Source of the DNA: Pigoraptor vietnamica
Taxonomy: Eukaryota > Opisthokonta > Filasterea
Direction of reading: 5' to 3'
Assembly: GCA_943704525.1 (NCBI GenBank)
Contig: CALSCQ010003028.1
Coordinates: 1-58,790, forward strand
Length of the DNA: 58,790 bases
The notes under the pieces were generated by a model. That model saw only the letters and a list, made by a program, of their open reading frames with translations. It was not told the DNA's origin and did not search any database. Positions 2,507 to 58,142 of the stretch are shown here, one piece after another (position 1 is the first letter of the stretch; each line of letters begins with the position of its first letter). The position numbers and the translations under genes are program-made.

Positions 2507-5418
2507 ATGTCGGCCATGGAGGGCGTTGAGGTCGCGCACGGCGGCACGCACTTTGAAGAGGCGTACGCGCGCAGCGTGACGAAGGAACTGCGGCATGCGC
2601 TGGAGCAGCTGCGGTCGCTGTGGCACAATGGTGGCAAGGTGTGTGTGTGGGCGCGCATTCTCGGTGCGAATTGAATTTGCAGCCAATACTGTCGATGTGA
2701 TTATCCATCTTTTTCTGACACGTTTTCATGGGTTTGTGCGCGCAGGGCGTGAACCAGGATGAAGTCGTTATGCGCTGTACGGTGTTACTGCTCGAACTCA
2801 AGCGCATTAACAGAGAGGCGGCGCTTTCCGGCAAGGCAAGTGTCACACGGCCGTTGATGGAAGACGTTTTTCATAGTGATCGTTCCTGAGTGTGTGTTGT
2901 GGGTGCGTTAGCGTGTTTGTGTCTGAGAGGCGCATGCTTATTCGCGTTCGTCTTCCACTCATCGTCTTCCACTCTGTCTGAGTTGCGTGCTTACACACAC
3001 ACGCGCATACACTCTTGTGTTGTTTGCGTGCGCGTTCTGCGGCACAGGCTATTGGCATGGACACGCAAGACACAAAGATGCGCATCGACGGCCTCAACCT
3101 TCACCTCCAAAACCTTCTCTACGAGCGCGACCATCTCTTGAAAGAGATCAAAAAGTGCCGCGATTTCAAGTCGCACGACCAGGAGATTGAGCTCGTCTCG
3201 GACGCCGACCTCGCCGCCATGCGCCCAGAGTCAGCCGCGCTCGAGGACCCGCACGCGGTGTGTGGCCGACCTTTGTTAATCTGCATGTCGAAAGTGGCAT
3301 TGAGTCTGTTGTCAGAGTGTTGTGATACGGAGGACCGGAATGTTTTCCATATTGTGTGCGTCGTTTCGTTGGATTCTGAACAGCCCCTTCTCCTCTCCTC
3401 CCCACAGCGCATGTTGGCGCGCCTGAGCCTTGAGCTCGAGGAGCGCAAGCGGCTGGGACAGGTGCTTTCGGAGCTGACAATGCGCAAGCACGACATGTCG
3501 GACGAGCTCTCGGCGCGCCGCAAGACGCTCGACGGCATCGGTGCTCATCTCGACGGCATTCTCAAGGCCAGCGCACCCCTCGCAGAGTTCCTGGGCAAGG
3601 GCGACGCACTCGCGCCGGTCGCGGGACACGCACCGCCGGGGACGTTCGCTGCGGCTGCATTGCTGCCTCGGCCTTTGTACGTCGTTCACGCGCACGCGTC
3701 AGCCTGCGGAAGCTCGTTTGGGTCGCCGGTGAGCGTGACGATTGTCGGCGACCTTGCCGAGGCGCGCGCGTTCAACGAGAACGCAGCAAACTCCGAGTCG
3801 CTGTGGCACAAGTCAGAAGAAGACGAGGACGAGGCCGATGGCGCGCAGGCAAAGCGCAGGCGGCGGCAGTCTCAGACGAGCGTTGTGAGCGAGCGGAAGA
3901 AGGCGCTCGTGGCACGGCACCCGCTCAGCGTGGAGGTCATCGTCGAGTGCGTCGAGAGCGTGACGGTGACGCTGCGCTTCGAGTACGTGCCGGCGATGTC
4001 TGTTGTGACGACGCATGCGTTTGCGCACGACCCCAAGGGGGCGACCGACCGCGCCAAGACGGCGCTGACGGGCGATTCGCTCCTCGTCGACCTCTATCCA
4101 GGCGATGCTGGCAACGTTGCGCCGAACGCGGCCGCCCACGTGCGAATGGATGCTGCGGGCGTGCGAGAGTTGGACCCCGCGACGCTGAAGGAGATGGGGA
4201 GGCCGTACCGGTGGGCGCAGTGGGTCGGTGGGCTGGACGCGCTCCCTCCGGCGGAGATGGCGGCGACGGATGCGCAGAGGGTGGACCTTCTCGCGTCGTC
4301 GCGGCACCACATCGCCTTGCTCTTTACTTTGTTGCAGCAGCGCGTCGCCGCTCGCATCGCGCTCTACGGTCTCGCCCAGAAGCTGCTTGCACGCTCAAAG
4401 GACGTCCCTCTGACGCCGTCCGCCGCCCGGCTGTTCAACCTGCGCCCGCTGTCGACCCTGTCGGACTTTAAGGAGATTTCGGGCGACGAATTCGATGCGG
4501 CGGCCAAGAAGACGGTTGGGGGTCCCGCGGGCCACTTTGCCGGCGTCGGCGGGGTGCGCTACTTCCGCGTGACATTTACGCGTGACGCCGGTGGGTGTTT
4601 GTTCTGTCGAACGGATCGTGAATCCACGCCTTGTATCTGTGATTCCTCGTTCCCCAATGTTTTGCGCTCGAGTTGTGCGTGCGCGGAGCCCGTTTTCTTG
4701 TTGACGACTTACAATTTTTTATTCGCCGTCCCGTCGGCAGCGTCCGTGTCGGCGGTCGTCGCCGTTCACCCCGCGTACCCCATCCAGCCGCCCGTGTTTC
4801 GCCTGTGGCTCTCGGAGCCGTTTGCGGCGGACACTGAGGCAGTGCGCGTGAGTGTTTCTTGTGTGCGGTTTGTTGGTGCGATGCTTTTTAAGGGGCCGCG
4901 CAAAGCTGTGTTGAAATATGTGCTCAACCTTTGTGATGTTTGCAGGGTATCGAGAAGGAGCTGAACGTCCACTACCGTGACGTCACTGTCCCCGGGGAAG
5001 AGGCGTCGCTGCTTGCGAACCAACTCCGCATGTTGCAGGTGGGTCACCCTGGGCTCCCTCGTGGCGCAGTGGTTTGTAGCTGTGCCCTCCCGAATGTTAT
5101 TCGCGCACGTTGCGTGACTCCATCTCATCTGTCCGTCTTCCCTTTCCTTTTTTTTAACGCAGATGTGTTTTGACATTTTGGTGGAGACTGAGAAGACCGA
5201 GGACTCCGCTGGGCGCATCTTCCTCCGAAAACACAAGTGGGTTGCGGTTGGGGTTGGGGTTAGAAGTGGGTGCGCGCACGTGGCGTTATCACGTTGCCAC
5301 TGTCAACGTGCGAGTGAAGTGCATTTGACACTGGCGTCTGCCTGTCACGTGCAGGGGCCGCGACCGCGCTCGGCCGTTCAAGTACAACCACATCCTCTCG
5401 TTCTTCGGACAGCGATGA
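2507..5418 (+). CDS. THOC5: THO complex subunit 5 (THOC5)
   Basis: Eight exons (2507-2638, 2746-2835, 3048-3257, 3408-4590, 4741-4847, 4946-5038, 5163-5236, 5355-5418) give 650 residues, against 683 in human. THOC5 is part of the nuclear THO/TREX complex that couples transcription to mRNA export. Diagnostic stretches are LHLQNLLYERDHLLKEI with KKCRDFKSHDQEIELVS near residues 83-120, the coiled-coil segment RLSLELEERKRLGQ, the late motif KELNVHYRDV, and a C-terminal exon ending RPFKYNHILSFFGQR that matches the human PFKYNH end. A basic cluster (KRRRRQ) mid-protein may be a nuclear signal. The start was chosen because exon 1 joins in frame and no upstream ATG does. Intron 2 has a GC donor. Its 3' end faces that of IFT140. 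Confidence 0.95.
2836..3047 (+). other. GC-AG intron in THOC5
   Basis: Exon 2 ends in AAG and the intron opens GCAAGT, the classic strong context of GC donors; the acceptor is CACAG before GCTATTGGC. This splice restores the conserved THOC5 reading frame, and nearby GT alternatives do not. Confidence 0.75.
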
Positions 5419-5680
5419 GCGCTTGGCTCCACTGCGCTGCAATGCGCTCCATTGTGACATATAAGAGACCTCGTTGCCCCACAGCGCAAAGTCAACCGCG
5501 TCTGTGTATTTACGCACGCGCAATAAGGCAGCACTGCCCGAAAAGGAACCGCGAAAACGAACAACAACAAGAAAAAAGAAACGCAAAAAAACACATGCAC
5601 AGCCATCATAATCAAAGCACCATCAACAACGCGTCAGACGTACGCGCGCACGAAACGCCAACTCGACGCACAGTGGCGCG

Positions 5681-8600
5681 TCATCGCTCATCGATGTCTT
5701 CGCCAATGTCGTCGTCGTCCTCGTAGCGGCGCGACGCCGTCGTCGGGCGCTGCTGCGGGGGCGGCTGCTGGTGCTGCGCGCGCGCGGGCTCCGCCTGCTT
5801 CTTGAGCGGGACGCCGACCTCGCGGTGAATCGCCTCGAGCGTGTGCACGTCGACGTAGTACGCCGCGTTGACATTGGGCAGGCGCTGCCTCATCGTCTCG
5901 AGGAGCGAGTAGGCGCGGCGGAAGTCCCCGCGGCTCGCCGCAAACTCGACGAGGAGGCCGTACACGTCGCCGCTTCGCACGGCCGACTCGAGGTCGGGCT
6001 CCTCGAGCAGCAGCTGGCACTGGCGGATCATCTCGTCGGGGTCGGTCGCGCCGAGCTTTCGGGCGGCGACAAACTTGTTGACGAGGTGGATGCGGTTCTG
6101 AAGTGAGGCAACGGCCGCCTCCTGCTCGGCGGGGTCGCGCATCTTCGCCTTGGTCATGCACTTGAACGCCTCCTTGAGCGCGCCGAGTGCCTTCTCGTAG
6201 TTTTGGTACTCGTCAATCTCGACCTGCGCGCACGCGTCGTAAAAGCCCGCGAGCGAATCCAAGGCGCGTCCCTTGGTGTAAAACCCGATAATGTTCTTCA
6301 TGATCTCCGGGTCGCTGCGCCAGTCGAGCGTCTGGAGGTAGTTGGCCGCCATGACGTAAATGTCCTTGTTGCGCGACACGCCCGCAAAGAACACAATCTT
6401 CTCCGTGTCCCCGGACTTGAGCAGCGCCTTCATCGCCTGCACCTTGTCGCCCGCCTGCGTGAACTTCTTGCACGCAAGGTGGTACGACCGCTGCTGCAAG
6501 CACGCGTCGCCGATGCGCATCAGCAGCCGCTGCCGCGTCGCAGAGTCCGCCTCCGTCTCCTTCCCTTCCTTCTGCGCCGACATGCGCTCGGCCATGTCCT
6601 CCGTGATCGGGATCGCGTGGTCCAGACACATGCCAATCGCCTCCTCAAACTTCTTCGCGACGAGCATCAGCTGCACGGCCTTCTCGTACTGTTGGTGCTC
6701 GATGAAGAACGCAGCGCACCGGTTCACCGTCTCCGGGTCCGTCCGCTCGTCCAGGTCCTCCGCAATCTGCCGGAGGGCGTCAAACTGCTGCGTGCGGAAG
6801 CACATGTCGAGCGCACGGGAGATCTCGCCGGCGCGGTGGTACAGCACGATGGCCTTGTCCGTCATGCCCTGCTTCGCCTCGTAGTAGCGCGCGGCGTCCA
6901 GCATGTCCTCGGGCTGCGCCTGGAGGGCGAGGTTGAGAATCTCGTGGTCCATTTGGTGCTCCTTTGCGATGCGGATGGCGTGGTTGAAGCAGCGCGCGCG
7001 TGCAAAGTAGCGCACGGCCTGCCGGAAATCCTCCTGCGCCTCGTACTGCTGCGCGAGGTGGTAGCACGCCAGCGGATCGTCCGTCTCGTTCGCGATCGCG
7101 TTGGCCTTCTCGAGGTTGCCGCAAAGACAGTACACGCGCACGACCGAGAGGTGGTCCCGCGCAGCCTCGTAAAACTGCATGGCCGTGTCCATCTCTCCCG
7201 CGCTCTCGGCAAACTGCGCCCACCACTTGCGGAGCTGCGCGTCGCTCGACCGGTTCACGTACGCCTCCAGCTCGACGGGGCGGTCGGCCAGCATCCGGGG
7301 CACCTCGAACCGGTGCGTCTCGGAGCGCTCGTACATGTCGATCGCGCGCGAGATCTCGCCGCACGCCTCGAGGAACTTGCCGTACGCGTAGCACGTCGTG
7401 CGGAGGTTGATGCGGTCGTTCTTGCTCGCAATCGCCAGCGCCTTCTCCCACTGCCCTCCGGCCTGGTAGAAGCGGTTCAGTAGGTCATACCGCTGGCACG
7501 CCATGTACAACCGCTCCGCCTCGTCCGGCATGCCCACGTGCACCGCGAGCGCCGCAACGCGTGCGTCGAGCTCGGGCTCCTTCATCGCCTCGCGCAGGGC
7601 CTTGGCGCCCGCAGCATTGCCCATGTGGCCGAGGCAGAGAGCGGCGACGTCGAGGCGCTTCGTCTTGACGCACATACGCGCCATGTTCTCCCACACGCTG
7701 CCGCTCTTGATGAGCTTGACCGCCTTGAACGCCTCGTCCATGTTGCCGACCGTCATGTGGAAGCTAAAGTCAACCATCGCGCTGCGCGTGCCGGCGTCGC
7801 AGTCCTCGAGCCCCACAAAATCGCGCATGGGACGCCCAACGATCAGGCGTTGACCCGGCTGCACATCGCCAGACGACCGCCGCGCGTAGAAGAGGAAGGG
7901 CACCTCGACGCCGACGAGGCAGTCCATCCCCTGCTCGATCCCAGGGCCCGGCTGCATGAACAGGCCGCCGGCATCGGGGGCCGCGAAGATGGTCGCGATT
8001 TCCGTGTCCATGAGGCCGGGGTGCAGCGGGCGCGCCTCGACGATGAGGACCTTGTGCTCGTGCGGGTCCCAGTAGTGTCGCACGGGATAGCGCGCCGACG
8101 TGCTAAAATCGTACGACAACACGCTATCAGACTCGACGTCCCACACGTGGATGCGCATGTCTGGCTGCCCGCTCGCCGCGCTCAGGGTCGCCTTGGTCGT
8201 GAGGATGCTCACGCGCGTGCCCGCGCAGTTGATGCGCGCAGAGACGACGCCGCCAACGCCCGTGACGGCCTCCAGGATGTTCTTGCCCACGGTGTGAGGG
8301 CGCACTTCGCGGCGCGACACGTCGTACACGCGAACAAACCCATGCGAGGTCGCGACGACAACGAATCCCTTGATCGCGTCGAGCGCAACGGGGTCCCCTT
8401 CCGCCTCGGACAGAGTGAGCGTCTGCTTCGGCGTGCCGTTGAACGTGCACACCTGCACCTTGCCGGCCTCCCCGATAAACACAGAGCCGTCGCACACGGC
8501 AATCGTCTGCGACGTCGACGCGAAAGAGCCGATCGGGCGCACAATCGGCGGCTCCTGCGCAAGCTCGAACGTCTCGACCTGCTTCCCGTTCCAGATGACG

Positions 8601-10988
8601 ACATTGTCGCGAGTGACGTACACCCCCTTGATGTGCATGTCCGACTTGACCTCGGCGTCCGTGGCAAACCCGTGCCGCTCGATCGCCAGCCGGCTGGGGG
8701 CCGTCTGGACAGCCCCCACCCCGTCCCGGAAGTGGTGCACCATCACGTGCTCGTCCAGGATCTTGACCGTGTCGTTGAGGTTGGCGGCGAGGAGGTTGCG
8801 GCGCGAGCCCCACGACACCTGCTTCACCACGCCGCCGACGTTCGACGGCGGGAGAAACTCCCAGCACGAGCGGCCGTCGTCGCGCGAGCCCGTCACGTCC
8901 CAGCTACGCGCGCGTCAGCCAACATCGCATCGATCAGTCGGATGAGCAAACCGACACACGTGGAGACAGGAGCATCAACGCTACGACACAAGCGCGCGTG
9001 ACCCCACGAGAGAGAGAAAGAGCAAAGGCAGACCCACCCAATGAACCGCCACATGACGACGTGGCCCTTGTCGGTGCCACCGGCAAGAATGCCCTTCATC
9101 GACGAATAGGCCGCCGACAGCACGCGGTCAGACTCCGTGAAACCGGTGTGCTGCGAGAGGGAGAGGTTGTAGTTGTCATCCCGCTCGAGGTCCCACACGC
9201 GGATCTTGCTCTCTCCGGACGCCGTCGCAAGCAGGCCCATGCCCGCCCAGATAATGTCCGTCGGATTCGGTCCCACGCTCAGCTTGACCTGCGGCAGAAG
9301 CGAAGGGCGGTGAGAATGTGCAAAACGCTATGTGCTGCACACGCACACAACACACGAGCGAAAGAAAGACGGCGTGACAGGAAGTCGCGCACGCACACGC
9401 ACACGCAAGCGCGGCGTACGCACCTCCATCACTTTGTAAGCCTTGCCGTCGCGGGGGACGAGGTGCTGCGAGAGCATCATAGACGTCGTCACGGCGAGCA
9501 CGGCGTCGCGGCCCTCGTAAAACAGCAGCTGCTGGATGGGATCGCCGACCATGAACGCCTCCACGCACTGCCCGCAGTCGTCCGCGAGATACACGATGCC
9601 CTTCTCGCCACCAAAGAAGAAGGGGGGACACTCGGCGGCCGGGAGCGGATTGCGACCGCCCGCCGCGCCGGCGAGACCGCCCACAGCGCCCTGCTGGTTG
9701 CGCTGCGCACGGCGCCAGTTCATGTCGCCGCTCGGTGGGTTATCGGGACCGTAGCGGGAAAACGCCGACGGGTCCGGGCCCAGTTGATTGCTGATCGTGT
9801 GCGCGCGAAGGTTAAGTGAGTTCGTTAGTGCAGTGGCCTTTTTGCATGGCCACCCCCCTCAACCCCAAACCACCTTCCCACGGAAATTCATCACGTAACA
9901 ATAGAGGGACAGAACTACGCACTTGAGGCTGTCGAGCTTGTCCGAGAGCAGCGCGCGGAACACGCAGTGCGTCATGGCGCCCGCCTTGCGGTAAGTGCAC
10001 ATGGAAGTGATGCGCCCACGCTGATCGGCACGCCACACGCCAACAACGCCCTCCTGCGCACGTGACAGCGGCGATGTGAGATCCGGATTTTTGAGAGGAG
10101 AAGAAGGAATAAAGCAGAACGGAAATGCGTAACACACGGCGAAACCATCGCCCTCAGCAATAGCACAAAGGGTTGAGACAGTAGTATCGCTTACAACGGA
10201 CAGATACGAAGTCCTTCAAAAAAGGACGGCTACCATGATCGCAGCAGCACCCACCTCGTCGCCCGAAATGAGCCGCGTGCCGGTCGAATTCCACTCGAGG
10301 AAGCGAATGCGGCCCTTGTGCAGGGAGACGTCCTCGTGCAGAAAGTGCTCGTGCTCGTTCCACAGGGAAATGGCGCCTGCGGTGCAAGTGGATGTGGGCG
10401 CTGAGTACTCGCATACGCAACACACGGCGTGTGCATCACAAACATTCTCGCACACACAACACACGAAACTTAAAACAAGCAATTCTTGTGTCTGATCCAC
10501 GCCTACGCACGTCAAAAGAGAGGAATCCGCAGAGGACGCAGGCGCAGTCAGGACGTCACCAACCCACCGGTCTCCCATCCCATCGCGAGCACCTTGCGGA
10601 GAGGGTGCCACTTGATGGCCGTCACGAGAAACGCGTTCGAAATGGACGCCGTCTCCACCAGCTCACCCTGAGCGACCCACCGACCACCAAATGTCAGGCG
10701 CAGTCCGTCGCTCATTATATATAATCACGCCCAAATCCAACTCTATCTGGAGCGTGCGCAAACTAAAGGTGCGCCAAGCGCAGAAGACAACGGCAGCGCA
10801 TCGAAGAATACGGATGGCCCAACTCGTACCTCGTCCAAGTAAAAGCGGATCGTGGAGCCCGACACGCCGGCGCGCTCCTCCTCCGACGCTACGGCAAGGA
10901 TGGGATAGTTGTTGTGCCACGCCATGTGCGTTGTGCGGCCTCCATCCCCCTCCGGGCGCTGGATCTTCGTGTCGAAGAAAAGCGCCAT
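5681..10988 (-). CDS. IFT140: Intraflagellar transport protein 140 (IFT-A subunit)
   Basis: Seven exons (10988-10830, 10667-10568, 10376-10255, 10053-9923, 9790-9424, 9288-9038, 8903-5681) give 1,450 residues, against 1,462 in human. IFT140 is a core subunit of the IFT-A complex for retrograde transport and cargo import in cilia. The N-terminus MALFFDTKIQRPEG and HMAWHNNYPILAVAS match IFT140; WD40 blades follow (GAISLWNEHEHF, RLISGDE, GVVGVWRADQRGRI, THCVFRALLS). The last exon codes the second propeller and then a long TPR-like alpha-solenoid from about residue 700, with units such as AAKKFEEAIGMCLDHAIPI and QQYEKAVQLMLVAKKFEEA. The C-terminus is acidic (YEDDDDIGEDIDER). Splice phases agree at every junction and the frame is intact, so a working cilium is likely. 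Head-to-head with the 11552 gene. Confidence 0.95.
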
Positions 10989-48780: not shown

Positions 48781-49521
<741 letters not shown>

Positions 49522-49873: not shown

Positions 49874-52800
49874 CTACACGTCCGACGCGGCCACGCTCAG
49901 ATCGTCGAGCGGGATGGACTGCATGCGCTCGAGTCCCCCGGGCGGTCCGTTAGCGCTGGCATCCTGCGCGGCCTTGAACTCGGCGATCTGCCCCAGCTGG
50001 TCCATATTGATCAGGTTCGTGAACGTGCGGCGCAGCTCGACCTCGTTCTGCTGGCGCGCGTGCACCTCCTCCTCCGTCGGCAGCCCGGCAAGCGTCGAGA
50101 GCCGCCGCGGCACAATCTTCTCGAGGAAGGAGGGGCGCCGCGCGCCCGACTCAGACGCGGCCACGGCGTCCGCAATGACGGCCTCTGCGGAAGGCGGGGG
50201 CGGGACGATCATCTCGGCGACGACCGAAGGGCGGCTGGTGCCTGCCATCTTCGCAAAGCTGCCGGGGATGGGCTTCTCCTCCTCCCTTCGGCGACGGCGC
50301 AGGAGGAAGCCCGCGATAAGGACGAGCAGGAGGGCGAGGAGCACGCCGCCCACAATCCCGCCGACAATAGCGCCGACGTTCGAACCCCCGCCGCTCGACA
50401 CGAAGAGGAGGCTGTTGGGATCCACGTAGCCGTACTCGGTGTACATGACAGTGACGAGCTGGTTGTAGCGCGCCGTGTTGCCGCACGAGTCGGTCGCGTT
50501 CCACTTGCGGAAAATGTGGAAGTTTGTCGGGCACCCCTTGGTCACCGTGAGGTTGCGCGTGTCGTCCGTTGTCTCGTTGAGAGCCACCGTCACGACACCG
50601 TCGCACGCGTCCACGGCAGAGAGCGCACTCGAGGGCCGCGGGTCGAAACACCGCACCACAACGGAGGCTTGTTGGGCGTCCACAAACCGCGGCGGCGTCG
50701 TGTCGTGCAGGCGCACCCTCTGTGACGCCGTTGCCACGTTGCCGCACGCGTCCGTCGCCGTCCACACACGCGTGAGGGTGCGGTTCCCCGCGCAGCCACC
50801 GAAAGTGACCGTCACGTTGAGGTCCAGTTGCGCGGCAGAGCATGCGTCGACCGCGGTGACGGGATTCGGAATGTCCACGCCGCACTCGCCAGAGAAGTCC
50901 GCGGGGACGTGCAAAAGCACCGGCGCCGCAGTGTCCGACACCGTGATGCGCTGCACCCCGACGGCGGCATTGCCACAGCGATCGACAGCGCGCCACGTCC
51001 GCACGAGAACGTACGACCCGTTGCACACGACGCTTTCCTTGGTCTCCGTGAGCGTGATCGTGATGTTTCCCGGCGAGTCGCAGTCGTCCGTCGCCGTCAC
51101 CGTGGCTGGCGCGGGAATCGCAGAGCAGCTTGCCGCGGCATCGGCGGGGACTCCGCTCAGCACCGGCGCCTTCGAATCCGCGTACTCGAGGTACTGGTCG
51201 AGACCCGCTTGGTTGCCGCACCTGTCCACCGCGCGGAACTGGCGCAGCACCGTGTACGTGTTGGGGCAGGCGCCGTTGAACCGCGAGACGGTCACATTCG
51301 GCGTGACAGGACCGTCATCCGACACGGTGACGTTTGGCAACGGGTCTCCGCACTTGAGGTGCACGATGGGTTCCCCGACGAACACGGGCGGAGTGGCGTC
51401 GCCGACGGAAACCCTCTGCGTGACGTAGTTGAAGTTGCCGCAGTCATCCGTCGCCGTCCAACGCCTCGTCAGGACGAACGAGTCGGGACACGAGCCGTTC
51501 TCCCTCGTTTCCGAGAGAACGACATTCGCTGCGCCAGAGCAGTCGTCGGTCGCAGACAGGACAGGAGCCGGGGGCACGCCACTGGTCGAGTGAATCGTGG
51601 CGTTCGGAGTGGCATTGAATGCCGGGGCGACCGTGTCCGCCACGTAGACGAAGCGAACGGCAAGCGCCACATTGCCGCAATCGTCCACCGCACGCCACGT
51701 GCGCCGCACACTGAAGCTCTGCTTGCATGTGAAGACGGGCTGGTCCTCCGTGAACTCGACGTTTCCCACAACTGTACCGCACTCGTCCACGGCCGTCACG
51801 ACGGGCGCGGCCGGCACCGACGAGCCGCACGTCAGAAAGATGTCGTCGGGCACCCCCTGAAGGACCGGGGGAACGGAATCAAACACCTGAACGACGCGCT
51901 CGGCCGATACCGCATTGCCGCAAGCGTCCGCGCTCGACCACGTGCGCCTCAGCGTGTAGTTGCCCGTGCACAGCACGTTTTCCTTGGCATCCGAGTACGT
52001 GACGGCGATGCTTCCATCGCAGAGATCGCGCGAGGACACCATGGAAGGCCCCGTCTTGAGGGACGGGTCGGAGCACGTGAGCGACGTCGCGCCCGGCAAG
52101 CCCGACAGCACCGGCGCCGTGTAGTCCGCCACGCGAACCGTTTGGGAAGCCGCGACCTTGTTGCCGCACGAGTCCGTCGCCGTCCACGTGCGCGTGATGT
52201 TCACGCGGTTGTCGCACGTCTTCTTGACGTCTTCGGACAGCGTAACGGCGGGGCTCGAGTCGCAGCGATCCGAGGCGCGCATTTGCGAGGCAGTTGCGGC
52301 GGGAACTTGCGCAGCGCACTCATACGTTGCGTCGGCCGGGACAACGGTGAAGAACTCTGGACGCTTCCTGTCCACGACGTTGATGTGCTGCACTATCCGG
52401 CCGACGTTGCCGCACGTGTCAATGGCCTGGAACGTCCGCACGAGCGTGTACGTGTTGGGACACACAAAGTTGCTCTTGACCTCGCTCGGGCGCGCGTAAA
52501 TTTTGCCGAGGCAGCCCTCGCCGACGGGATTATCGATGCAGTCGCGCGAGGAATCGCAGTAGTCAATCGCAATGGCGTCCTGGGCGGCGGGAAGGAGGTC
52601 GCAGTCCGCAAGCGCCACGTCCGAGAACACGGCGCCCCCGAGGAACAGCGGCGGCGCGTTGTCGCCCACGTTGATCGTCTGCGTCTTCGTGGCCGTGTTG
52701 CCGCACCAGTCCTTCGCGACGAACGTCCGCGTGAGCGTGAAGTTACTGCCGCAACCCCCGAGCATCTTTGTCTCCTGCGTGATCAGCGCGGGGTTCGGAT

Positions 52801-55800
52801 CGCAATCGTCCGTCACGTTGACGGGCTCGTCCTCGACGCTCTCGAGTTCCCACGCATCCTGGCACGTCATCGCCGAGTCAGTCGGCACGTCGTTGATCAC
52901 AGGCGCCTTCGTGTCCGTCACAATGTTCCTCGCTTCCGCCCGAACCACGTTGCCGCACCCGTCCGTCGCCTCCCACGTGTACACGCGCGTGAAGCTCCCT
53001 CCACACGCGCCGGGTTCGTCGTTCTGCGTCATCGTCACGTCCACCGATCCGAAGCAAGCGTCCGTGGCTGTGACGGCCGGGGGAACCGCGACAACGTCGC
53101 ACGCGTCAGAGCGGTCCTCCGGTATGCCGGAGAGCACGGGTCCCGCCGCGTCCTGAACGCCGATTGTCTGGGACGCCGTTGCCGTATTGCCGCACGCGTC
53201 CTTCGCCGTCCACGTGCGCACGAGCGTGTACTGGTGCGCGCAAGACCCGTTCATCCGCGCCGTGGACACGGTTACGACGGGGGCGATGTCGCAGTCGTCG
53301 ACGGCCGAAACGGCGACCGCGTTTTCCGCCGGAACGCGGTCACACGCGACGTTCTGGTTCGCCGGGACACCGACCAGCGTCGGCTTCGTCTCGTCGACGA
53401 TCGTCACGACCTGGGTGGCGGTGGCAGCGTTCTGGCACTGATCCGTGGCAGTCCATGTGCGCGTGAGGGTGAAGGCTTGGCCGCACGATCCGGCAGCCTT
53501 CGCCTCATTGAACGTGATCGTCGCCGTGCCGCAAACTGCAGTGGCGCTGAGCGACGGAACAGCGGGAATGGCCGAGCACGCCGCACGCACGGTGGCCGTC
53601 GGCGTCGAAGCAAACGAGGGCGCAGCGGCCGAAGCCACAGTGATCGTCTGCGTCTTCGAGGCGACGTTCCCGCACTGGTCAGTCGCTGTCCACGTGCGCA
53701 GGAGCGTGAAGCGCCACGGGCAGTTGCCGTCCACGCGCGTCTCCCTGAACGCAACTGTGGCCGTTCCGCACGAGTCGGTCGCAGTGACGGTCGGCGCCGC
53801 GGGCACCGCATTGCACGCCACAGTCGCGTCGGCGGGAACGCCCACGAGAACGGGCGCCTCGTTGTCAAAGGCAGTCACACGCTGCTGGAATGTCTGCGTG
53901 TTACCGCACGCGTCATTGGCCACCCACGTGTGCACGCGCGTGAAGTTGCCGGGGCACGCGCCGTTAATGGTCTGCAGGGTCGGACCCGACACGGTCACCA
54001 CCTGTCCAGACTGGTTGAGGCCGAGGACTGTGGGGACGACAATGGCAACGCTGCACTTGGTCGAGTAGTCGACGGGGTTCGGCAGGCCGGTCACGTTGGG
54101 AAGGCGCCCGTCGGACACGAGAATCGTCTGCGTAACTGTTGCGGCATTGTTGCAGCCGTCAATAGCGGTCCAGTTGCGCTTGAGCGTGAACGTGTTGCTG
54201 CACGTGCCGTTGACGCGCGTCTCCGTCCCGGGAACGTTGATGGCGCCAAAGCAGTTGTCCTGTGCCGTCTTGGCCGCAATCGCCGGCACCGTGTTCGCTT
54301 GCGCAAAGGGGAATTGAATCGTCTCGGATTGAGCGCCGCTGAACACGGGGGGAGTGGCGTCGCTCACGGTGACCAATTGGCTCAAAGAGGCAGTGTTTCC
54401 GCACGCGTCGGTCGCCGTCCACGTGCGATTCATAGTGTACGACTGCGCGCAGGCCCCGTTCGTACGCGTCTCCTTGTACGTCACTGTCGCGCTGCCGCAA
54501 TTGTCCGTCGCTGTCACAGTCGCGGCAGGCAGAGGGTTTTCGCACGAGATGGCAGTGTTCGCGGGGACGCCGCTGAGGACCGGCTTGGTCGTGTCCTTCA
54601 CGTTGACCGTCTGCACAAACGTCGCCACGTTGCCGCACTCGTCCGTCGCAGTGTACGTACGCACAATCTGATACGTCGACGTGCAGGAACCGGGATTCGT
54701 TGCCGTGGTCATCGTCACAGTCACCGGCGAGCCGCACTCGTCCGTTGCCGTGAGGGTCGGTGCGGCGGGTATGCTGCTGCACTCGGCGTCGATGATGGCC
54801 GGGGGCGGCGACGTAAACACAGGCGCCGCCGTGTCCGTCACGTTAATCGTCTGCGTGCTCGTCGCCGTCAGTCCGCACGCGTCCGTCGCCGTCCACGTGC
54901 GCTTCAGCGTAAACTCGTTGGTGCACTTGCCGTTCGTGCGCGACTGCGAAAACGTAACCGACGCCGCACCGCAGTTGTCCGTCGCGGTAACAGTCGGCGC
55001 ATTCGGCAGAGTCAAACACGTGGCCGAGGCGTTCACAGGCACGCCCACAAGCACCGGCACGACATTATCGGTCACCGTGATCGTCTGAGAGGCCGAGGAC
55101 GGGTTGTTGCACGCGTCCACCGCCGACCACGTCCGCTTCAGCGTATAGCGGTTGGGGCAGTTGCCAGCCGTCTTAGTCTCGTCAAAGGTGAGCTTCGGGG
55201 CGGTGTCGCAGTCGTCCTTGACAGCCACATTCACGGGCGCAGCGGGCACCGCCTCGCAAGAGACCGTCGCGTCCAGCGGCACGTTCGAGATGGCAGGCGC
55301 GACATTGTCCGTCACCTGCACAACCTGCGTCGCCGTCGGGGACGTGTTGCCGCAGACGTCCTTCGCCGACCACGTGCGCGTCAGCGTGTAGGCAGTCGCG
55401 CACGAATTGGTTCTCGTCTCCGAGAAGGAGACTGTCGGCGTGCCCGAGCACGAGTCCACGGCCGAGACTTGCGCAGTTGGCACGGGGTCCGTGCACTTGA
55501 CGGTGACGGGCGCAGGCACGTTCTGGAGGACAGGGGCCTCGCGGTCGCTCACCGAAATCTTCTGCTCGTACTGCGTGACGCCCCCGCATTGAGCGATGGC
55601 CCTCCACCGGCGGAAGATCGTGTACGTGTTGGCGCACGACCCCGCCTGCGTCACGTCCGTGGGGTTCACGTTGAAGAGCGTCCCCGCGCACGTCTCTTGC
55701 GCTTGCAGTATGCCGCCCGCAGGCACAGACTGGCACGAGACCGAAATGTCCGAGGGAACGCTCGTGAACTTGGGTGCGGTCGCGTCGAACGGGTAGATGT

Positions 55801-58142
55801 AGTAGCGGAACGTGTTTGCGTTGCCGCACTCGTCGCGCGCGGTGACCGTGCGAGTGATCGTGTAGTTGCGCGGGCAAGCACCCGGCGTCGTCGTCTCGTT
55901 CGTCGCCGACAGCGTCACGGTCCCGCCGCAGTTATCGGTGGCCGTGAGGGTGACGGGCGAAGGAATGGTCGAGCCGCATGCAACGGCCTGGTCCGCTACG
56001 TTCGACGTGAACGTAGGAGCGACGTTATCCGTGACGTTGATCACCTGCGTGTACGTCGCCGTGTTTCCGCACTTGTCCGTGGCAGTCCACGTCCGGGTCA
56101 GAAGGTACTGGAACGTGCACGCTCCCGCCGTCCTTGTCTCGCTCTGAGTCACGGTCGTCGAGTTGTTGCAATCGTCCCTTGTCGAGAGCGTCGGCATAGT
56201 GGACACGCCCGTGCAGGAGACCGTTGCGTTGGCGGGAGGATTGATGAAGGTCGGCGGGTTCTTGGACACTGAGACGAAGGGGAAACGGATATGGAAGATT
56301 TAAATTGATGCTTGTCAGCATAAAGGACATCCGCGCAGAGACAGGCATGCGTTCGTCAAGCAGAACAAGGACAGGACCGCGCCACATCCACGCGCACCCA
56401 CATGTCTTCACCGTCCCGTTGTTGGAGTTGACGCCGCTGTAAATCCCGGTCGAGTTGGCCGTGCACGACACGACGGCGCCCACAAAGTTGGCGCTCGCAA
56501 AGATCACGGGCATTGGCATGGTGCGCGTCGTCGTGCACTTGGGGAAAGTGATCGGGGTAAAAACCGCGCTCCCGTCTGCCGCGCGGCACGTGACCGTCGT
56601 GTCTTGGTCCGGCTGGTAGCTGAGTGTGATGTTGACAGTGCGGGGAATGTTTTTGTAGACGATGAAGGAGGCGTCCCTGCTCTCTGTCGAGAGCGTAACC
56701 GCTGTGCGCGCGCAGGGCGAAATGAAAAGGGATGAGCGAGCGACCGCGCAGATTGAAGTAAGGTAATAATGGGAGTGCACGCAGGCCGAAATGAAAAGGG
56801 ATGAGCGAGCGACCGCGCAGATTGAAGTAAGGTAAAGGGAGTGCACGATTGAGAGACAACTGACATAGAGAGTTAGGGTTAGGGTCAGTCACCCGCACAC
56901 ATCGAACTCCAGGCTTTGTTTGGCCACTCACTCGGAGAAAAGTAGAGGGTCGTCTCGGCGTAGAACGTGCTGCCAGTGGTGTGTCGCTCGGCGTTGAAAA
57001 TGCTCAGCGTGTACTCGTTCCCGGGGATGAGAATGAGCTGCGCTCACGCAAGAGTTGCACACGTTCAGGAAAACACGATACATGCACGCAAGCGCGCGCA
57101 CACACACGAACATGCACGCACACACGCACGCACACGCACGCACACGCACGCACACGCACGCACACGCAATCGCAGGCAGCACATTGTCACGTACATTCTG
57201 CACGACACCCGTGTTGCTCGTGATCTTGGTGTTTGGCGGGAGAGAAATCGTCGCAGACTCGGGAGAATGAAGGCCGCCAAGATCTGATGATTTACGCACA
57301 ATCACGCACGCACACGCACACGCACACACGCACACACGCACCACACACACGCACACACACGCACATACACACACGCGCGCAATGGAGTCAGTTCCCACAT
57401 TGAGTGTGAAGCAGGGATGCACAGATAAATGTTACGACAGCTCGCCGCACACCCACCGACGACGAGGTACCCCTCGATGAACGCCCAGAAGTCGTCGTCG
57501 CCAGAGAAAGTGAACGACTCGAAGCCCTTGTACTGAAACTTGAACTTGAGCTCCGTCGTGAAGGCATAGTTGTTGCCGTTCGTGTAATAATCGTTGAAGC
57601 CGAGGCCATTCAGAGGGAAATAGTTCGTCCCGTCCGTCTGCTGGGCGGCCGCCGTCCTGAACTTAGCGGAACCGGCAGACACGCGCGACCACTTCATCTT
57701 GCCATCCACGCGAATGTTCTTCAGGCCGCTCGCGAACGGCCCGTCGTTGAACCACGTGTAGAAGCTGTCGTTGCTGATGAACGCGCGCCTGTTCTCCGCG
57801 AGGCTCCAGATGGAAGGGTTGGGCGTGGGTTTGCTGCACACAGTTGACATTCCGTTAAAGTCCAGAACAAAAAGGACTTAAAGGAGAATGAATTTTCCCG
57901 AGAAACGGCACGCACCCGTTCGCGTCAAGCGTTTGCAGGACGACGTTCTTCGTGGACGTCGGATAGCTGCTCCGCTCAAAGTCGGGATGCCGCTGCGAGG
58001 GGCTGGACGGGTATCCGCTGTGGTGGTCGCGCCACACGACGTCAAAGTACACGTCGGTCGTCTCGCATTGCGCCGTCACACCGACAACGGCGAGCGCAAG
58101 CGCCGCGGCAACCCACAGAGCAGTCTCGGCATGGCGCGCCAT
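49874..58142 (-). CDS. Giant type I membrane protein: fibro-slime/PA14-like domain plus 24 HYR-like repeats
   Basis: Six exons (58142-57916, 57833-57457, 57283-57195, 57037-56932, 56701-56402, 56268-49874) give 2,497 residues; the last exon is 6.4 kb. A signal peptide (cleavage near GVTAQC) leads into a fibro-slime/PA14-like lectin fold: VYFDVVWRDHHSG, HPDFE, FTFSGDDDFWAFIEGYLVV, LGGLHSPESA, NEYTLSIFNAERH. After about 110 linker residues come 24 repeats of 75-90 residues (about 367-2310) of HYR type, each ending near TRTWTATDACGNTATATQT and opening APVLSGVPADATVSC, with four to six Cys per unit. One membrane span (coded near 50300-50377) is followed by a stop-transfer RRRRR and a 141-residue tail. 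It is probably a surface adhesin or receptor. The repeats closely resemble those of Bacteroidetes surface proteins. The frame is intact throughout. Confidence 0.9.
50300..50377 (-). other. Transmembrane segment of the HYR surface protein
   Basis: About 26 hydrophobic residues (Gly/Val/Leu-rich, starting VGAIVGG and ending IAGFLL) preceded by a Gly/Ser linker and followed by RRRRREEE. This orients the repeats outside and the tail, with its Ser and Pro motifs, inside the cell. Confidence 0.9.
56711..56888. repeat. 69-bp tandem duplication and TTAGGG pair in surface-protein intron 4
   Basis: Two near-identical copies about 69 bp apart share CGAAATGAAAAGGGATGAGC and GAGCGACCGCGCAGATTGAA. They lie beside the acceptor of the intron 56931-56702. 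At 56871-56885 the sequence GTTAGGGTTAGGGTC gives two telomere-type hexamers. Confidence 0.85.
57100..57170. repeat. CACACGCACG microsatellite in surface-protein intron 3
   Basis: A run of CACACGCACG units inside the intron 57194-57038. A second CA/CG run lies at 57301-57380 in intron 2 (57456-57284) of the same gene. Confidence 0.9.

What the first reader, a model, noticed from the sequence alone, without database searches (positions are those of the whole stretch)
49874..58142. Surface protein joining a fibro-slime/PA14-like head to 24 bacterial-looking HYR repeats
Seen: signal peptide, GDDDFWAFIEG-type fibro-slime fold split by introns, 24 Cys-rich repeats in a single 6.4-kb intronless exon, one membrane span, 141-residue tail. 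Known: repeats ending TRTWTATDACGN are abundant in Bacteroidetes surface proteins, and fibro-slime domains occur in bacteria and Dictyostelium. Inference: the repeat block may have entered by transfer from bacterial prey and been fused to an intron-bearing head and a eukaryotic tail, making a prey- or cell-recognition receptor.
Basis: partly seen in the sequence, partly recalled or inferred. Interest (0 to 1): 0.8.

Follow-up and report, generated by a model that had tools for sequence, protein, structure and literature searches.

The report
Stapled-stalk adhesin of an animal relative
A single-celled relative of animals carries a pair of genes for a very long cell-surface protein, a sugar-binding-type head on a stalk of 24 repeats anchored in the membrane, and the way cysteines vanish in pairs from neighbouring repeats suggests that each stalk unit is chemically stapled to the next.

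Summary
Minus strand 58142-49874 gives a six-exon, 2497-residue gene: putative signal peptide, fibro-slime/PA14 head over exons 2-4, 24 HYR_4C repeats in one 6395-base exon, one membrane span, 141-residue tail. It is one gene: a paralog in the same genome keeps all five introns, and a 2530-residue protein of Opistho-2 (Pigoraptor chileana) has the same head, 24 repeats and tail. The species is probably a Pigoraptor-like filasterean. Transfer from bacteria is neither shown nor excluded: GC3 of head and repeats is alike, the array predates the species split, and a tree of single repeats is unresolved (p-AU 0.547). Two further findings: (1) cysteine losses covary between neighbouring repeats, C1(n) with C2(n+1) and C3(n) with C4(n+1), hardly within repeats, so each joint is probably stapled by two disulfides; (2) a 2.6-kb gene-conversion tract covers about repeats 3-13 of the two paralogs. 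Best reading: a membrane-anchored, fibrillar-adhesin-like protein with a covalently braced stalk, for holding prey, surfaces or partner cells. Pairing, ligand and function are inferred.

The parts
57916..58142 (-). exon 1: start, putative signal peptide, first part of the head
   Evidence: gene model; signal peptide by eye
57457..57833 (-). exon 2: head; fibro-slime match begins here (from 57574)
   Evidence: TIGR02148 residues 163-262, PF07691 residues 141-265
57195..57283 (-). exon 3: middle of fibro-slime domain
   Evidence: same exon in paralog
56932..57037 (-). exon 4: end of fibro-slime domain
56402..56701 (-). exon 5: about 100 residues with three cysteines kept in all three family proteins; no Pfam match
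49874..56268 (-). exon 6: 24 repeats, membrane span, tail, stop
50429..56251 (-). 24 HYR_4C repeats (residues 373-2313)
   Evidence: PF23237 E 1e-90; 24 profile matches
53180..55804 (-). gene-conversion tract shared with the paralog (residues about 521-1396, repeats 3-13): 94.2% identical against 68.2% elsewhere
   Evidence: two-breakpoint fit, four-fold sites 474/527 against 285/598
53852..54346 (-). repeats 9 and 10: repeat 9 lacks C1, repeat 10 lacks C2 (paired loss)
51164..51622 (-). repeats 20 and 21: repeat 20 lacks C1, repeat 21 lacks C2 (paired loss)
50300..50377 (-). membrane span, residues 2331-2356, followed by RRRRR
   Evidence: Kyte-Doolittle maximum 2.80
49877..50299 (-). 141-residue tail, presumed cytoplasmic
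50012..50059 (-). conserved tail motif ARQQNE(V/I)EL(K/R)RTFTNL
   Evidence: same in paralog and Opistho-2 protein

Best explanation
The gene encodes a eukaryotic, membrane-anchored protein built like a bacterial fibrillar adhesin: an N-terminal fibro-slime/PA14 head, a small three-cysteine region, a stalk of 24 HYR_4C beta-sandwich repeats, one membrane span and a short tail with a conserved motif. The stalk works as a braced rod: at each joint C1 and C3 at the far end of repeat n form disulfides with C2 and C4 at the near end of repeat n+1, so the head is held well off the membrane by a rod that cannot easily bend or unzip. The head most likely binds carbohydrate on prey, starch or partner cells, and the tail links to the cytoplasm. 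The gene exists as two dispersed copies whose stalks have been partly homogenised by gene conversion. Shown: gene structure, domains, repeat count, family in two species, conversion-like tract, cysteine covariation. Inferred: disulfide pairing, rod mechanics, ligand, adhesion role, tail function.
For: Gene model and domains. Paralog with the same exons and phases, dN below dS in every segment compared. Opistho-2 protein with the same layout. Staples: in the other 119 proteins listed, C1(n)/C2(n+1) phi 0.83 and C3(n)/C4(n+1) phi 0.93, against 0.17 and 0.08 within a repeat (tolerance 2). In the three eukaryotic proteins 6 of 6 C1 losses are followed by a C2 loss in the next repeat, with no unpaired loss in 68 adjacent pairs (5 scored and 1 unaligned). 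In 20 stretches from 12 bacterial genomes 13 of 15 losses lie at the free array end where no partner repeat exists. The paired columns are 94-95 residues apart, more than one 79-residue period (columns). The AlphaFold2 model of repeats 6-8 (pLDDT 90.8) puts C3 and C4 in turns at opposite ends of strands of about 10 residues in all three repeats, so a C3-C4 bond inside one repeat is implausible. Best fold match SraP adhesin (4m00, E 3.4e-8), then cadherins. PA14 is a frequent, promiscuous adhesive domain in bacterial fibrillar adhesins (PMC8286594); fibro-slime proteins are implicated in cellulose adhesion (PMC4668043); the Pigoraptor/Syssomonas paper reports adherence to prey before feeding (PMC7147346).
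Against: Exceptions: 42 of 692 losses in the 119 proteins have the partner present (63 more unknown), 5 of 22 in the 15 proteins, 2 of 15 in the genome stretches. C4(n)/C3(n+1) also shows a weaker correlation, phi 0.41. The genome stretches hold no paired losses inside arrays, so they test only the end effect; overlap with the 119 proteins was not checked. Partners of the end cysteines are unknown: C1 and C3 of last repeats do not covary (phi 0.03). No ligand test; the head has no PDB match by sequence at E up to 1. The tail was found in no protein but the Opistho-2 one (limited to proteins of similar length).
Confidence: 0.72

Rival explanations
1. Chimera by bacterial transfer: the repeat exon was taken from Bacteroidota and fused to a eukaryotic head and tail.
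For: HYR_4C matches in 26 of 198 genomes of the phylum of the Saprospiraceae locus (19 over cut-off), against 10 of 200 (none over cut-off) in the phylum of the Rhodobacteraceae locus. Among the 120 listed repeat hits only Opistho-2 comes from a eukaryote source; those of the others that bear organism names are bacterial. The repeats are one intronless exon. By mean of all pairs, 43 of 119 arrays are closer to the window's repeats than these are to each other.
Against: GC3 is alike and overall codon use of the repeats is no further from the head and tail (0.114) than IFT140 is from THOC5 (0.192). By best match the window's repeats are closer to each other (mean 73.1 bits) than to 23 random repeats of the other proteins (68.1) or to a typical single array (median 63.1, maximum 74.1). 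The array is older than the split from Opistho-2. One eukaryotic clade of repeats is not rejected. A 1077-codon intronless frame also occurs in the IFT140 gene. Only 120 of 2220 hits were visible.
Confidence: 0.35
2. Ancient eukaryotic HYR_4C family, vertically inherited and lost in most lineages, or passed from eukaryotes to bacteria.
For: Old, internally diverged array; a clade of eukaryotic repeats is not rejected; window repeats closer to each other by best match.
Against: No eukaryote-source protein other than Opistho-2 appears in the visible repeat hits (120 of 2220; 20).
Confidence: 0.2
3. The four cysteines pair inside each repeat (C1-C2, C3-C4), and the neighbour covariation is a by-product of block duplication.
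For: Losses are concentrated: 182 C3/C4 paired losses lie in 29 of 119 proteins.
Against: Losses would then co-occur within a repeat; phi within is 0.17 and 0.08. 34 C1/C2 paired losses lie in 15 proteins. Shuffling repeat order within arrays gives means of 15.7 and 74.2 against 63 and 200 observed. Free-end losses in the genome stretches and strand topology point the other way.
Confidence: 0.12
4. Two adjacent genes or an assembly chimera read as one.
For: Only the abrupt change from intron-rich head to intronless repeats.
Against: Paralog with the same five introns; Opistho-2 protein spanning both; THOC5, IFT140, R3H and Homeobox_KN genes in the window.
Confidence: 0.02

Closest known systems
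Opistho-2 (Pigoraptor chileana) protein P0014, EukProt Opistho-2@78054
   Same: Head, exon-5-type region, 24 repeats, membrane span, tail motif; 62% identity over the searched repeats
   Different: Its repeat 8 groups with repeat 13; membrane span plus tail only 34% identical to the window's
Bacteroidota-type HYR_4C surface proteins (PF23237)
   Same: Same repeat, same cysteine columns and same neighbour covariation of losses
   Different: Many list the sorting or gliding-motility domains PF18962 or PF13585; none of the 119 lists PA14 (PF07691)
Bacterial fibrillar adhesins (PMC8286594, passages; RTX adhesins PMC7493085, abstract in a listing)
   Same: Adhesive domain plus tandem stalk; PA14 is a frequent adhesive domain there
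   Different: This one is eukaryotic and intron-bearing, with a membrane span; RTX repeats are stiffened by calcium in the linkers, here the predicted stiffener is a pair of disulfides
Staphylococcal SraP ligand-binding region, and cadherins
   Same: Best-ranked solved folds for the three-repeat model (4m00, E 3.4e-8; cadherin chains)
   Different: 22% identity or less in the 50 rows shown; cadherin joints are braced by calcium (recalled)
Fibrobacter fibro-slime proteins
   Same: Same named domain (TIGR02148); implicated in cellulose adhesion (PMC4668043, passages read)
   Different: Bacterial; I recall no HYR_4C stalk in them and did not test it

Membership tests
HYR_4C (PF23237) | profile match over the curated cut-off | tested here: met
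   E 1e-90, 298 bits against cut-off 27
HYR_4C (PF23237) | four cysteines per repeat | tested here: met
   19 of 24 repeats have exactly four; repeats 9, 10, 20 and 21 have three, repeat 16 six
Classical HYR / hyalin repeat (PF02494) | profile match | tested here: not met
   not reported for the exon-6 protein at E up to 0.1; both PF02494 matches listed in the genome are on contig C387
Fibro-slime domain (TIGR02148) | profile match over cut-off | tested here: met
   78.8 bits against 45
PA14 lectin-type adhesin (Flo/Epa) | PA14 profile match over cut-off | tested here: met
   28.3 bits against 24
PA14 lectin-type adhesin (Flo/Epa) | calcium-coordinating Asp-Asp pair and glycan binding | not testable with these tools
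   GDDD is conserved in all three heads, but no structure or binding data; the DcisD motif is described in PMC8621652
Fibrillar-adhesin-like protein (PMC8286594) | adhesive domain plus tandem stalk domains in one protein | tested here: met
   PA14 plus 24 repeats; the word HYR does not occur in that paper's main text, and its supplement was not seen
Fibrillar-adhesin-like protein (PMC8286594) | bacterial cell-surface protein | tested here: not met
   gene is eukaryotic (introns, neighbours); so it may work like one but is not filed as a member
T9SS-exported Bacteroidota surface protein | C-terminal domain PF18962 or PF13585 | tested here: not met
   no such match in the exon-6 protein at E up to 0.1; membrane span instead

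The most novel reading that the evidence does not exclude
HYR_4C arrays, in bacteria and in this animal relative, are covalently braced cables in which every repeat is bound to the next by two disulfides. A filasterean lineage captured such a ready-made bacterial cable, put a fibro-slime lectin head on it and a membrane span under it, duplicated the gene, and still homogenises the two stalks by gene conversion, giving a long stiff tether for prey capture or joint feeding.
Probability: 0.35. Interest if true: 0.8.

Novelty: new variant of a known kind. Interest (0 to 1): 0.62.

Why it matters
Fibrillar adhesins are described as bacterial. An intron-bearing, membrane-anchored counterpart in a relative of animals shows the same design in a lineage close to animals, and gives a concrete candidate for how such predatory cells hold prey and each other. 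The predicted pairing of cysteines between neighbouring repeats would define a stalk braced by covalent bonds where RTX adhesins use calcium; it concerns the HYR_4C family as a whole and can be tested with two or three recombinant repeats. The conversion tract gives a clear case of a receptor-like pair whose stalks evolve together while heads and tails diverge.

Tried and rejected
Rejected: (a) a long open frame on the other strand, 50726-56272, 1848 codons: 114 of 300 synonymous reshuffles of the window's repeats reach about that length and the paralog's longest is 757 codons, so codon bias explains it. (b) Settling the bacterial origin by a tree of single repeats: 79 columns; 118 rows (48 eukaryotic, 70 of 3456 others), then 110 after dropping 8 long rows; unresolved. 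The paralog's 24 repeats were left out because of the conversion tract. (c) Composition as a sign of transfer: GC3 alike, overall codon use similar, though single codons differ (for example TCG 0.24 of serine in head and tail, 0.51 in repeats). (d) genome-contig scan with the window's repeats: 2 loci only, one weak. (e) A first alignment of 22 overlapping three-repeat pieces went out of register; 8 pieces served for the PDB sequence search, 7 non-overlapping pieces for the model. (f) End cysteines pairing with each other: no covariation. (g) In one search, where unaligned first repeats counted as C1 lost, 65 C1-only losses appeared in the 119 proteins and 8 in the 15; with unaligned positions set aside 4 and 1 remain. 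(h) Head fold: not submitted, since the head is spliced from several exons and the structure tool takes unspliced sequence.

Papers: PMC9492541, PMC7147346, PMC8286594, PMC4668043 and PMC8621652 by passages; PMC7493085 by its abstract in a listing. Searches without any paper: 'HYR domain' with 'fibro-slime'; 'HYR-like domain', 'HYR_4C' or 'PF23237'. Listings ('HYR domain' or 'hyalin repeat' with choanoflagellate, Bacteroidetes, horizontal gene transfer, disulfide; 3, 3, 6 and 5 papers) were seen, not opened. The library holds open-licence papers only.
Full report
GENE. The minus strand from 58142 to 49874 holds one gene of six exons with five GT-AG introns; the frame closes across every junction and gives 2497 residues. 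Profile searches put fibro-slime TIGR02148 (78.8 bits, residues 163-262) and PA14 (28.3 bits) in exons 2-4 and HYR_4C PF23237 (E 1e-90) in exon 6. A profile built from repeats of the three family proteins finds 24 repeats in each. One hydrophobic span (2331-2356) is followed by five arginines and a 141-residue tail without cysteine; the repeats hold 32 N-glycosylation sequons against a shuffled mean of 22.6. The window also holds THOC5, IFT140, an R3H and a Homeobox_KN gene, so it is eukaryotic nuclear DNA.

FAMILY. The same genome (32.5 Mb, 1395 contigs, unnamed) has one full paralog at C156:33822-41738, 2482 residues, with the same five intron places and phases. Against 28 kb of C156 around it, the nucleotide comparison found similarity only over the gene (blastn rows; its tblastx rows were unusable). 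The protein search over 5.8 billion sequences scored 7990 candidates and listed 120 of 2220 hits; one comes from a eukaryote source, the 2530-residue Opistho-2 protein. PMC9492541 states that Opistho-2 is Pigoraptor chileana, a filasterean. Head, repeats, membrane span and the tail motif ARQQNE(V/I)EL(K/R)RTFTNL align end to end in all three. Its serial number, 78054, exceeds the protein counts given for P. chileana in that paper (37,783 from transcripts, 14,510 from the genome), so it probably comes from a transcript assembly and supports the head-repeat junction at RNA level; that is inference. The window's species is therefore likely a Pigoraptor relative, perhaps P. vietnamica (inference). 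Searches with the Opistho-2 head (120 of 505 hits listed) and with its last repeat, membrane span and tail (20 hits) showed no other protein with the layout; the head's next hits are a PA14 protein of unnamed source and a Dictyostelium firmibasis PA14 protein, and the other hits cover 25-32% of the query. Both searches saw only proteins of about 0.55-1.75 times the query's length. The same genome has further fibro-slime matches on C1186 and C805; neighbouring frames look cadherin-like on C1186 and EGF-like on C805 (read by eye), so the head seems to be reused on different stalks.

HISTORY. For 23 of 24 repeats the best match in the Opistho-2 protein is the same-numbered repeat, and for 24 of 24 in the paralog; the exception is repeat 8, which in Opistho-2 groups with repeat 13 (SH-aLRT 96), as after a replacement inside the array. 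Outside the tract described next, identities window-paralog, window-Opistho-2 and paralog-Opistho-2 are 0.726, 0.640 and 0.680 in the head, 0.577, 0.570 and 0.557 in repeats 1-2, 0.657, 0.627 and 0.656 in repeats 14-24, and 0.452, 0.344 and 0.484 in membrane span plus tail, so duplication and species split look of similar age. Inside 55804-53180 (2625 nt, residues 521-1396, about repeats 3-13) the two paralogs are 94.2% identical against 68.2% elsewhere; four-fold sites agree at 474 of 527 inside and 285 of 598 outside, while both copies are 63-64% identical to Opistho-2 there. I read this as gene conversion after the species split; the direction is unknown.

TRANSFER QUESTION. For: HYR_4C is common in the listed Bacteroidota-type proteins and was met in 26 of 198 genomes of one phylum (19 over cut-off) against 10 of 200 (none over cut-off) of another; the two phyla were reached through a Saprospiraceae and a Rhodobacteraceae record. 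By mean of all pairs 43 of the 119 other proteins are closer to the window's repeats than these are to each other; in a sample of 30 of them it is 10 of 30, while most of those arrays are much more self-similar. These proteins were listed because they resemble the window. Against or neutral: by best match the window's repeats are closer to each other (mean 73.1 bits) than to 23 random other repeats (68.1, sd 2.7) or to single arrays (median 63.1, maximum 74.1); GC3 is 0.825, 0.836 and 0.876 for head, repeats and membrane span plus tail; codon distance repeats to head and tail 0.114, IFT140 to THOC5 0.192; the array is old; single-repeat trees are unresolved (18 changes; 14 changes and one clade not rejected, p-AU 0.547). 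I leave the origin open.

STALK MECHANISM. Repeats 9 and 20 lack the first cysteine and their followers 10 and 21 lack the second, and the same holds in the paralog and in Opistho-2. This suggested bonds between neighbours. In the other 119 proteins (3693 repeats, aligned with the profile), with cysteines sought within two alignment columns and unaligned positions set aside, C1(n)/C2(n+1): 3057 both present, 34 both lost, 14 one lost, phi 0.83; C3(n)/C4(n+1): 3013, 182 and 28, phi 0.93. Within a repeat phi is 0.17 and 0.08; reversed neighbours give -0.01 for C2(n)/C1(n+1) and 0.41 for C4(n)/C3(n+1). Over tolerances of 0 to 3 columns and both ways of treating cut-off repeats, phi is 0.63-0.85 and 0.70-0.94. 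Paired losses lie in 15 and 29 proteins. Shuffling repeat order inside arrays gives means of 15.7 and 74.2 paired losses against 63 and 200 observed (that count includes partly aligned repeats). If the bonds join neighbours, a lost cysteine should lie next to a lost partner or at the array end where no partner exists. In arrays of at least two repeats (single repeats dropped), the 119 proteins have 692 losses: 155 at the free end, 432 with the partner lost (each pair counted from both sides), 63 partner unknown, 42 exceptions. In 20 stretches from 12 of the 26 matching genomes: 13 of 15 at the free end, 2 exceptions; these hold no paired losses inside arrays. In 15 further proteins: 9 free end, 4 partner lost, 4 unknown, 5 exceptions of 22. 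The paired columns are 94-95 residues apart, beyond one 79-residue period, so any such bond joins different periods. An AlphaFold2 model of repeats 6-8 from seven window pieces has mean pLDDT 90.8 and pTM 0.68; strands 31-41, 48-58 and 63-72 and their equivalents put C3 in the first turn and C4 in the second in all three repeats, that is at opposite ends of the domain, which fits bonds across joints and not within. Best-ranked solved folds are SraP and cadherins (TM-scores 0.29-0.48 over the query in the rows shown, so the multi-domain arrangement is not matched closely). The mature window protein has 98 cysteines, none in the tail. Not resolved: partners of the end cysteines.

FUNCTION. PA14 was the third most frequent adhesive domain, and a promiscuous one, among bacterial fibrillar-adhesin-like proteins (PMC8286594); fibro-slime proteins are implicated in cellulose adhesion (PMC4668043); PA14 adhesins of yeast bind sugars through calcium (PMC8621652); and the paper on Syssomonas and Pigoraptor reports adherence to prey before feeding, joint feeding and aggregation (PMC7147346). 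Together these make a long, stiff, membrane-anchored glycan-binding tether the most likely role. The conserved tail motif suggests a cytoplasmic partner. No experiment supports this yet.

Noticed in passing
window 50726-56272, plus strand: 1848-codon open frame antisense to the repeats; explained by codon bias (114 of 300 synonymous reshuffles reach about that length; paralog 757).
   Followed up: yes
G000:C387:15158-15882 (L041): Another gene with EGF-like and HYR-looking repeats; two PF02494 matches and one PF23237 match of 28.6 bits.
   Followed up: partly
G000:C805 about 3700-9900 (L040): Fibro-slime head with EGF-like repeats and a membrane-span-like segment downstream, by eye.
   Followed up: partly
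G000:C1186 about 7500-9900 (L039): Fibro-slime head with cadherin-like sequence and a membrane-span-like segment downstream, by eye.
   Followed up: partly
P0014 repeat 8: In the Opistho-2 protein repeat 8 groups with repeat 13: exchange inside the array too.
   Followed up: partly
repeat 16, window 52358-52648: Carries an insertion with two extra cysteines (six in all), kept in the paralog and the Opistho-2 protein.
   Followed up: no
window 56711-56887: Intron 4 holds a 69-base tandem duplication and a short TTAGGGTTAGGG stretch read.
   Followed up: no
window 48928-49059: Nearly pure TG, GA and GT dinucleotide runs downstream of this gene.
   Followed up: no
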